A stretch of 33,502 nt of DNA from an uncultured Treponema sp. (GTDB lineage: Bacteria > Spirochaetota > Spirochaetia > Treponematales > Treponemataceae): the NCBI GenBank assembly GCA_946061765.1, contig CAMGTC010000004.1:1-33502 (forward strand). Reading direction: 5' to 3'. Of this stretch, positions 1 to 16,270 are shown piece by piece; within the stretch, counting starts at the first letter, position 1; the number at the start of each line of letters is the position of its first letter. Under the pieces are notes generated by a model that saw nothing but the letters and a program-made list of their open reading frames with translations, searched no databases and had not been told where the DNA came from. Position numbers and translations under genes: made by a program.

Positions 1-127
1 AGTTTCTGACTGGTAGTAAGTTTTCAAACTGTTATGTTGTTTGATTTAAACGTTCCTTTTCCTTTTCCTCATTTAGTTTCAAGAGTAATCAAGATTTTCT
101 ATACAAATGTAATTATGAAAAATAAAA

Positions 128-14783: not shown

Positions 14784-14834
14784 TATGAATTAGAGAAAGA
14801 TTTGGCTTGGAAAAATTCTAATCTGAATCAATGT

Positions 14835-15104
14835 TTAAATTGAATGGCTAAAATATCGCCATTCAATTTAATTTAGAGTTTCTTGCGAAACTCTTATATT
14901 GTTAATCAAATATCCTCGGTTGTTGAAACAACCTGCGGTATTTGATTTTAAGGAAGGTTCAAAATGAATAGTGCAGATAGCACTATTCATTTTAAGTCTC
15001 GAGTTTTTTTGTAAAAACTCTGTTTATTTACGTGTTCGCTTGCGCGAACGTTTTGTAAATCCTCAGTTGTTGAAACAACTTGCGGTTTACAAAATTAAGG
15101 AAGG
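14835..15104 (+). promoter_or_regulatory. multi-hairpin structured leader with a duplicated module upstream of the GH27 gene
   Basis: Stems: 14835-14848/14858-14871 (14 bp); 14875-14882/14887-14894; 14906-14912/14939-14945 enclosing 14918-14923/14928-14933; 14961-14974/14980-14993 (14 bp); 15001-15008/15013-15020; 15034-15039/15044-15049; 15051-15059/15086-15094 enclosing 15065-15070/15075-15080. Confidence 0.8.
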
Positions 15105-15115
15105 AGTAATTGTAA

Positions 15116-16270
15116 ATGAAAACTATAAAATCAACCCCTCCAATGGGCTGGAATTCCTGGAATACTTTTGGATTTTATATTAACGAAGATTTAATCAAAT
15201 CTACAGCTGATTTTTTTGTAGAAAGCGGTTTAAAAGATGCTGGTTATGAATATATTGTAATAGACGATTGCTGGAGCGAAAAAGAAAGAGATCAAAATGG
15301 ACGCTTAGTCCCAGATCATGAAAAATTTCCAGGTGGAATGAAGGCTCTGTCCGATTATGTTCATTCAAAAGGTTTAAAATTTGGAATCTACTCTTGTGCA
15401 GGAACTCACACTTGTGCAGGCTACCCAGGTAGTTTTGAGCATGAATTTATTGATGCCCAGACTTTTGCAGAATGGGGTGTTGATTATTTAAAATACGATT
15501 TTTGTTACAAACCTGTAAGTGCAAACGGACCTCTTTTGTATAAAAGAATGGGAATGGCCTTAAGAAATTGTGGTCGCGAAATTATGTTTTCTGCCTGTAA
15601 CTGGGGAAATGATGATGTTGTAAAATGGATTCGCGAAAGTGGAGCAAATCTTTTCCGTTCTACAGGGGATATTCAGGATAACTGGAATTCAATTCTTGGA
15701 ATTGTAAAAAGTCAGTTGGGTAGAGAATGTTACGGGGCTCCATATTGTCATAATGATATGGATATGCTGGTAGTTGGAATGCACGGAAACTCTGATAATA
15801 AAGAAGTTTTAGGAAATGTGGTTGGTGGTTGTAACGATACAGAATATCAGACTCATTTTGCACTCTGGGCTATTATGAATTCTCCACTTATGATTGGTTG
15901 TGATGTAAGAAAAATGTCTGCCAAGGCAAAAGAAATATTAACCAATAAAGATGTAATTGCCATTAATCAGGATGAAGAATGTAGAGGGCCTTATGTGGTT
16001 CGTCAGTTTAACAGTCCTGAACAGGTATTTGCTCTGGTTCGCCCATTAAGTAATGGGGACTACGCTATTGGAATGTTTAACTTTCTGGATAAAAGCTGGG
16101 AAATGTCTTTACAGTTTTATGATATGGGGCTTACATATTCTTCTGGTTATTCTTTTGAAATTTATGATTGTTATGACCATAAAACTCTTGGAAAATTTAA
16201 CGAAAGACTTTCTGTTAGACTTGAAAGTCATGAAAGTAAGATTTTCAGAGCAAAATTAGTAAAACGTTAA
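15116..16270 (+). CDS. alpha-galactosidase (glycoside hydrolase family 27-like)
   Basis: 'TPPMGWNSWNTFG', 'YIVIDDCWSE', 'YLKYDFCY'; AAGGAAGGAG upstream of the ATG. Confidence 0.9.
   Translation: MKTIKSTPPMGWNSWNTFGFYINEDLIKSTADFFVESGLKDAGYEYIVIDDCWSEKERDQNGRLVPDHEKFPGGMKALSDYVHSKGLKFGIYSCAGTHTCAGYPGSFEHEFIDAQTFAEWGVDYLKYDFCYKPVSANGPLLYKRMGMALRNCGREIMFSACNWGNDDVVKWIRESGANLFRSTGDIQDNWNSILGIVKSQLGRECYGAPYCHNDMDMLVVGMHGNSDNKEVLGNVVGGCNDTEYQTHFALWAIMNSPLMIGCDVRKMSAKAKEILTNKDVIAINQDEECRGPYVVRQFNSPEQVFALVRPLSNGDYAIGMFNFLDKSWEMSLQFYDMGLTYSSGYSFEIYDCYDHKTLGKFNERLSVRLESHESKIFRAKLVKR

What the first reader, a model, noticed from the sequence alone, without database searches (positions are those of the whole stretch)
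14835..15104. Duplicated multi-hairpin leader module upstream of the GH27 gene, with compensatory changes: candidate novel structured RNA
About 270 nt between a candidate promoter and the GH27 start is almost entirely hairpins, in two successive modules. Module 1 has a 14-bp stem (14835-14871), AGAGTTTC-TTGC-GAAACTCT, then a two-part stem-loop. Module 2 has a 14-bp stem (14961-14993), GAGTTTTT-TTGT-AAAAACTC, an extra GTTCGC-TTGC-GCGAAC, then the same two-part stem-loop. Primary sequence differs between modules, but fold order and loop types (TTGC/TTGT, TGAA) persist. This pattern suggests selection on RNA structure. I do not recognise the motif as a known riboswitch, but I cannot search Rfam.
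Basis: partly seen in the sequence, partly recalled or inferred. Interest (0 to 1): 0.85.

Follow-up and report, generated by a model that had tools for sequence, protein, structure and literature searches.

The report
SD-targeting mobile hairpin element, TD-1 family
The hairpin-rich leader is not a switch belonging to the alpha-galactosidase gene but two side-by-side copies of a small mobile hairpin element, related to a catalogued RNA of unknown function called TD-1, which spreads through Treponema genomes by landing at ribosome-binding sites and leaving a working one behind.

Summary
The hairpins are real: the leader folds at z = -8.9. They are two complete copies of one dispersed element, 14833-14955 and 14957-15102. 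The own genome has about 45 copies, and 34 of 118 congeneric genomes carry it. An alignment of 47 diverged copies shows compensatory changes in 35 of 37 pairs; 94.5% of cells pair, against 68% shuffled and at most 44% slid.

It is mobile. Relatives show clean empty sites next to RGGAAG or GAAC, head-to-tail arrays occur, and in a complete genome 20 of 49 right ends supply the Shine-Dalgarno (SD) of the next gene (2 of 49 antisense, 4.5% of random intergenic positions). Downstream genes are unrelated, so it is not a GH27 regulator.

It is not wholly unknown. Rfam TD-1 (Treponema, function unknown) matches 14866-14953 below its cut-off (38 bits, E 7e-5), and my model recovers TD-1 loci in reverse. 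New points: the missing 5' hairpin, exact ends, mobility, SD targeting, and a likely mobiliser. In one genome, element termini (GGAGGTAcGATAAAAAG...TTTTTATrGGAG) match those of its SD-targeting IS110 element. No IS110 was found for the window's own end type, so mobilisation in trans is inferred there.

The parts
14833..14955 (+). Element copy 1 (123-nt subtype: hairpins A, B, D; no C)
   Evidence: Same unit with the same ends found alone or in arrays elsewhere; CM hit 124.9 bits (this copy is in the training set)
14957..15102 (+). Element copy 2 (146-nt subtype: hairpins A, B, C, D)
   Evidence: About 40 further copies in the own genome; CM hit 155 bits (this copy is in the training set)
14835..14871 (+). 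Copy 1 hairpin A, 14-bp perfect stem whose base is the element's left end
   Evidence: helix 1 covaries at all 14 pairs in A3
14875..14894 (+). Copy 1 hairpin B
14904..14947 (+). Copy 1 hairpin D, two-part stem with internal loop UCCUC/UGCGG and UGAA loop
   Evidence: helices 3 and 4 covary at all 17 pairs
14866..14953 (+). Match to Rfam TD-1 RNA (RF03155), 38.1 bits, below gathering score 64.5
14950..14956 (+). AAGGAAG: SD-like right end of copy 1, which forms the insertion target of copy 2
   Evidence: sequence; same motif at other insertions
14961..14993 (+). Copy 2 hairpin A, 14-bp perfect stem
15001..15020 (+). Copy 2 hairpin B
15034..15049 (+). Copy 2 hairpin C
   Evidence: helix 2 in A3
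15051..15094 (+). Copy 2 hairpin D
15097..15106 (+). AAGGAAGGAG: right end of copy 2 serving as the SD of the alpha-galactosidase gene, 9 nt before its ATG
   Evidence: sequence; the same arrangement is statistically enriched in G132
15116..16270 (+). Downstream gene: alpha-galactosidase (GH27-type, Melibiase_2)
   Evidence: neighbour only, not part of the element

Best explanation
The region is a head-to-tail pair of small (123 and 146 nt) non-autonomous mobile elements of the TD-1 superfamily, inserted in sense orientation at the SD of an alpha-galactosidase gene. Shown: each unit folds into a conserved series of hairpins (A, B, optional C, two-part D) kept by massive compensatory change across Treponema; it has exact ends; it inserts next to SD-like purine motifs (RGGAAG, AAGGAG, GAAC); its right end carries AAGGAA, so an SD-like motif is found on both sides after insertion. 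The next gene thus keeps a ribosome-binding site, and a fresh target is available for the next copy, which would explain the tandem arrays. Inferred: copies move in trans by a recombinase that reads the termini, most likely an IS110-type bridge-RNA recombinase, because one subfamily shares both terminal sequences and the SD target with IS110 elements of the same genome. Also inferred: once inserted, the hairpins become the 5' leader of the downstream mRNA and may alter its translation or stability, as a consequence of insertion and not as a sensor for that gene's pathway.
For: Copy number and dispersal. Covariation: 35 of 37 pairs, 94.5% paired versus 67.9% shuffled and at most 44.2% slid. Clean empty sites, best at 98% identity G132 versus G072. 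Enrichment of start codons behind the right end: 20/49 versus 2/49 antisense versus 4.5% random intergenic. Head-to-tail arrays. TD-1 match both ways. Shared termini with IS110 in G132: left end 3 IS110 + 5 elements, right end CTTTTTATGGGAG 3 IS110 + 1 element, none in the reversed-sequence control; G010 element with IS110-like ends on both sides; IS110 copies that could be read all sit in SDs.
Against: IS110 genes are absent from several copy-rich genomes, including complete G067 and G072 and the own genome, and no IS110 with the window's end type (GTTTAAA...TTTTAAGGAA) was seen. Target repeats are imperfect. About 60-70% of copies are not directly before a start codon. The reason for conserving the interior hairpins is not explained by end recognition alone. 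The window copies are below TD-1's gathering score.
Confidence: 0.75

Rival explanations
1. A riboswitch or other cis-regulatory leader that evolved to control the alpha-galactosidase gene, duplicated locally for tandem control.
For: Strong fold directly upstream of the start codon, tandem arrangement, conserved internal loops.
Against: The same element stands before aroB-like, aminopeptidase-like, lipid-kinase-like and many other genes, behind genes, inside genes and between convergent genes; empty sites exist.
Confidence: 0.03
2. A genuine, selected 5'-leader RNA (for example an mRNA-stabilising or translation-tuning element with built-in SD), which spreads by recombination and is kept because it benefits host genes; mobility is secondary.
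For: Right end acts as SD in 20/49 G132 copies; C+D-only copies start exactly at hairpin C, some with a TATAAT-like box about 10 nt upstream (by eye); interior hairpins covary although ends alone should suffice for movement; Rfam types TD-1 as cis-regulatory.
Against: Many copies have no gene downstream in sense; patchy presence between close relatives; neighbours share no function.
Confidence: 0.25
3. A REP/BIME-like element moved by a Y1 (RAYT) transposase.
For: Hairpins at both ends; six of seven element genomes first tested had a Y1 gene, none of three without; one RAYT gene carries a related element in its leader.
Against: Copy-rich genomes G067, G072, G131, G132, G030 have no Y1 gene; the RAYT genes are flanked by another repeat, GGGGACAGACCCC.
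Confidence: 0.05
4. A retro-element moved by reverse transcription of its structured RNA (SINE-like).
For: Conserved fold, intact 3' ends, several copies without hairpins A and B, variable-length target repeats.
Against: RVT_1 genes are absent from most copy-rich genomes, including complete G067, G072 and G132, and present in some without copies; the short copies start at one point (hairpin C), not at random points.
Confidence: 0.04

Closest known systems
TD-1 RNA (Rfam RF03155, clan CL00124 with TD-2 RF03162); candidate structured RNA of Treponema (its origin in the Weinberg et al. 2017 motif survey is from memory; that paper is not held)
   Same: Same order of hairpins B, C, two-part D and the same purine-rich 3' tail; matches both ways between the models; multicopy in Treponema, tandem arrays; T. 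denticola-type copies also show hairpin A on reading.
   Different: Window copies score 38 bits against a cut-off of 64.5; the Rfam model lacks 5' hairpin A; ends differ (GTTTAAA...TTTTAAGGAA versus TATGATAAAC...GTTTTTATAGGAG).
IS110-family insertion sequences (bridge-RNA recombination; PF01548/PF02371)
   Same: In G132, one subfamily shares both termini and the SD target site with the IS110 copies.
   Different: No recombinase gene; interior is four hairpins, unlike the IS110 left end; the window's subtype has other ends and its genome shows no IS110.
Structured interspersed repeats of other bacteria (ERIC, bcr1, NEMIS, YPAL; PMC2267715)
   Same: About 100-170 bp, intergenic, multicopy, predicted common secondary structure, no transposase of their own.
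   Different: No sequence relation was looked for beyond Rfam; here the target is an SD, the fold has three to four separate hairpins, and compensatory change runs across the genus.
REP/BIME with RAYT
   Same: Palindromic, dispersed; the same genus also has RAYT genes.
   Different: Those genes go with another repeat (GGGGACAGACCCC) and are absent from copy-rich complete genomes.

Membership tests
TD-1 RNA (RF03155) | Score at or above the family's gathering threshold (64.5 bits) | tested here: not met
   Window best 38.1 bits; other genus copies 41-53 bits; some genus genomes do pass with other copies
TD-1 RNA (RF03155) | Hairpins B, C, two-part D, purine tail in that order | tested here: met
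   Full-length model alignment 1-120; in the window copy 1 lacks hairpin C, copy 2 has it
TD-1 RNA (RF03155) | Common descent: reciprocal detection | tested here: met
   My model R1, built without TD-1 loci, finds five TD-1 loci of the T. denticola-type genus and a G316 array over positions 1-143
TD-1 RNA (RF03155) | Cis-regulatory function | not testable with these tools
   No expression data
Non-autonomous IS110 element | Termini shared with an IS110 element of the same genome | tested here: inconclusive
   Met for a G132 subfamily; not met for the window's subtype (no IS110 found in its genome)
Non-autonomous IS110 element | Same target site as the IS110 element | tested here: met
   Both sit at SD-like motifs
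Non-autonomous IS110 element | Movement by IS110 recombinase and bridge RNA in trans | not testable with these tools
   Needs a recombination assay; a 22-bp donor works in trans for IS621 (PMC11208160)
REP/RAYT system | Y1 transposase present with the repeats and flanked by them | tested here: not met
Retro-element | Reverse transcriptase in copy-rich genomes | tested here: not met
Riboswitch of the alpha-galactosidase gene | Consistent association with genes of one pathway | tested here: not met
   Unrelated neighbours, all orientations

The most novel reading that the evidence does not exclude
TD-1 and its relatives are not primarily cis-regulators but the bodies of non-autonomous IS110-type elements, moved in trans by bridge-RNA recombinases programmed to hit Shine-Dalgarno sequences, so that each insertion gives the target gene a new structured 5' leader with a rebuilt ribosome-binding site; the strong structural constraint reflects either recognition by the mobilising machinery or protection of the host gene's translation.
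Probability: 0.4. Interest if true: 0.78.

Novelty: new variant of a known kind. Interest (0 to 1): 0.6.

Why it matters
It explains an orphan Rfam motif (TD-1), abundant in treponemes, as a mobile element, and adds its missing 5' hairpin and exact ends. It gives a clear case of a mobile element that lands on ribosome-binding sites and rebuilds them, a way to insert next to genes with little harm and a possible way of rewiring 5' leaders. The shared termini link structured non-coding repeats to IS110 bridge recombination, which makes a direct test possible. It also warns against annotating such leaders as riboswitches of the gene they happen to precede.

Tried and rejected
Riboswitch of GH27: rejected, multicopy with unrelated neighbours. 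Rfam at gathering score: no hit; only the sensitive search of the short region revealed TD-1. Y1/RAYT transposase: looked promising on 10 genomes, rejected on 27 more. Reverse transcriptase: rejected. IS110 by presence or absence across the genus: no correlation; support comes only from shared ends and shared target. A second repeat that abuts several copies (GGTTTAAATCAAACAAC...) was tested as the autonomous partner: it is itself a short repeat, nearly confined to G000. Intron or bypass idea (element inside a coding frame): joined flanks restore a frame in a few loci only, so rejected as general. Intrinsic terminators: hairpin B resembles one by pattern only. A scan for extra helices by raw column pairing missed B because its length varies.

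Full report
WHAT IS IN THE WINDOW. The region folds far better than shuffles (z -8.9; single units -7.8 and -6.4). The gene at 15116 is an alpha-galactosidase (Melibiase_2); the divergent upstream gene is an anthranilate-synthase-like protein. The leader resolves into two complete units, 14833-14955 and 14957-15102, each starting at the base of hairpin A and ending in AAGGAA. The second AAGGAA runs into GGAG to form the SD, 9 nt before the ATG.

IT IS A DISPERSED REPEAT. A whole-genome search with the leader found about 45 places in the own genome. Module 2 is the abundant type; module 1 has two further, nearly identical copies. Most copies sit at contig ends, as expected if the repeat broke the assembly. 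The copies line up end to end. Of 59 relatives, 7 genomes had DNA matches. With a covariance model built from 35 copies, 34 of 118 genus genomes have copies at E <= 1e-6, up to the 27 per genome that the tool scores. In 1.6 Mb of one complete genome (G132) there are 59 hits at E <= 1e-3, one of them an antisense echo. Sequences differ widely between genomes; order and length of the hairpins do not. All named records with the D motif that were listed are Treponema or Spirochaetia/Treponemataceae metagenome bins.

STRUCTURE IS UNDER SELECTION. On a plain MAFFT alignment of 47 diverged copies, RNAalifold recovers hairpins A, C and both parts of D. Counting gives 94.5% of 1724 cells paired against 67.9% in shuffles and at most 44.2% when partners are slid, double changes in 35 of 37 pairs, and a covariation score of 0.672 against 0.181. 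Hairpin B is present in the individual folds, but its length varies, so it was not counted. The same symmetry would be kept if single-stranded DNA were the selected form; the data do not separate RNA from single-stranded DNA.

IT IS MOBILE AND LANDS AT SHINE-DALGARNO SEQUENCES. Flanks joined without the element found empty sites in relatives. The clearest: G132 has TTTTTAGGAAG-[element]-GCTTAGCATG where G072, about 98% identical there, has TTTTTAGGAAGGCTTAGCATG. Others are at L148, L050 (GAAC) and L064, the last inside a conserved reading frame. Left flanks end mostly in GAAG, GAAC or AAGGAG. The base after GAA agrees on both sides in 18 of 30 single insertions (12.2 expected, p 0.014), so a short target repeat is likely but imperfect. 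Because the right end itself is SD-like, it is a target for the next insertion, which would explain the frequent head-to-tail arrays (TD-1 arrays in G316 and G306). In G132 a start codon lies within 20 nt after 20 of 49 right ends, against 2 of 49 on the opposite strand beyond the left end and 4.5% of random intergenic positions. In the mixed set from many genomes about a third do so; the rest lie between convergent genes, behind genes or at gene ends. Gene calls there are simple ORF calls, so these counts are approximate.

RELATION TO KNOWN FAMILIES. No Rfam family reaches its cut-off, but a sensitive search of 361 nt finds TD-1 (RF03155) at 14866-14953, 38.1 bits, E 7e-5. TD-1 also finds other copies at E 4e-6 to 1e-3, covering B, C, D and the purine tail. 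In an order-wide TD-1 search, 30 of 149 genomes have matches at E <= 1e-5, 20 of them above the cut-off; every matching genome is in the window's own family. One of these (G246) has exactly the chromosome length I remember for T. denticola ATCC 35405 (2,843,201). TD-1 loci there also show hairpin A and an AGGAG on the left, and my model, which includes A and was built without them, recovers five TD-1 loci of that genus plus the array in G316 over its full length. So Rfam's TD-1 looks like a partial view of the same kind of element. I file the window copies as divergent relatives, not as TD-1 members, because the cut-off test was not met.

WHAT MOVES IT. Y1 transposases and reverse transcriptases do not follow the copies. 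Multicopy genes in G132 include an IS110-family recombinase. Its three copies, and the others of that lineage that could be read in the genus, sit in SDs with the start codon just behind the right end. The left end GGAGGTA[AC]GATAAAAAG (one mismatch allowed) occurs 8 times in 1.6 Mb: three IS110 copies and five hairpin elements, none in the reversed-sequence control. The right end CTTTTTATGGGAG occurs four times: three IS110 copies and one hairpin element. GTTTTTATRGGAG occurs 12 times, nearly all of them hairpin-element ends before start codons. A hairpin element in G010 carries the IS110-like ends on both sides. IS110 recombination reads short donor sequences; in published work a 22-bp donor sufficed with bridge RNA supplied in trans (PMC11208160). 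Mobilisation in trans is therefore plausible for that subfamily. For the window's subtype (GTTTAAA...TTTTAAGGAA) no matching IS110 was found, and PF01548 is absent from several copy-rich genomes, so there it is an extrapolation.

WHAT IT MAY DO. Inserted in sense at an SD, the element becomes the 5' leader of the gene. In G132 many copies consist of C+D+SD only and begin at hairpin C, and some have a TATAAT-like box about 10 nt upstream (read by eye, not tested). This would fit a maintained leader function and is my main rival. No expression data were available. The GH27 gene is one of many neighbours, and nothing points to sugar sensing.

CONFIDENCE BY STEP. Dispersed, mobile, structure-conserved element: about 0.95. 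Relation to TD-1: about 0.9. Preference for SD-like targets: about 0.9. IS110-type mobilisation of the subfamily with shared ends: about 0.5; of the window's subtype: about 0.35. Any regulatory effect on the alpha-galactosidase gene: open.

VERDICT. New here, to my knowledge: the complete element behind TD-1, its mobility, its SD targeting, and a probable IS110 connection.

Noticed in passing
L385, L388, L389, L390, L393, L394, L399, L403 (G015, G029, G132, G104, G143): A 369-aa IS110-family lineage in Treponema inserts in Shine-Dalgarno sequences: left flank AAGGAGG-like, right end TTGACTTTTTATGGGAG with a start codon a few nt behind in each copy read. A natural SD-programmed bridge-RNA element.
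   Followed up: partly
window 1-51 (minus strand); L284, L286, L288, L290, L291 and others in G000: A second repeat family with inverted ends (GGTTTAAATCAAACAACATAACAG...), 37 matches in the own genome, one in G010; several copies abut the hairpin element at its GAAGG end, so both seem to prefer the same kind of site.
   Followed up: partly
L031:1420-1900, L021, L022, L024, L025, L028 in G000: A repeat of roughly 200 bp with inverted ends (GGGCAAATGCATTATAAAC...GTTTATAATGCGGAAGCCC) is inserted inside hairpin A of several copies in the own genome.
   Followed up: no
L062 (G014); L039 and L041 (G000): Single hairpins are replaced or joined by larger, unrelated hairpins while the rest of the element is kept, as if stems were exchangeable modules.
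   Followed up: no
L358, L322:8184, L366, L351, L329, L350, L332 (G132): Short copies consisting of hairpins C and D plus SD start at hairpin C, and some have a TATAAT-like box about 10 nt upstream; A+B-only copies also exist (L320:12169, L379:13590).
   Followed up: no
L075, L078, L079 (G006, G000, G014): RAYT (Y1) genes flanked by GGGGACAGACCCC-type palindromic repeats, a REP/RAYT system in rumen- and gut-type Treponema.
   Followed up: no
window 14965-15015: Copy 1's SD-like end is followed by an ATG inside copy 2 that opens a 16-codon frame (MNSADSTIHFKSRVFL); probably a by-product of the hairpin sequence, but it could be translated.
   Followed up: no
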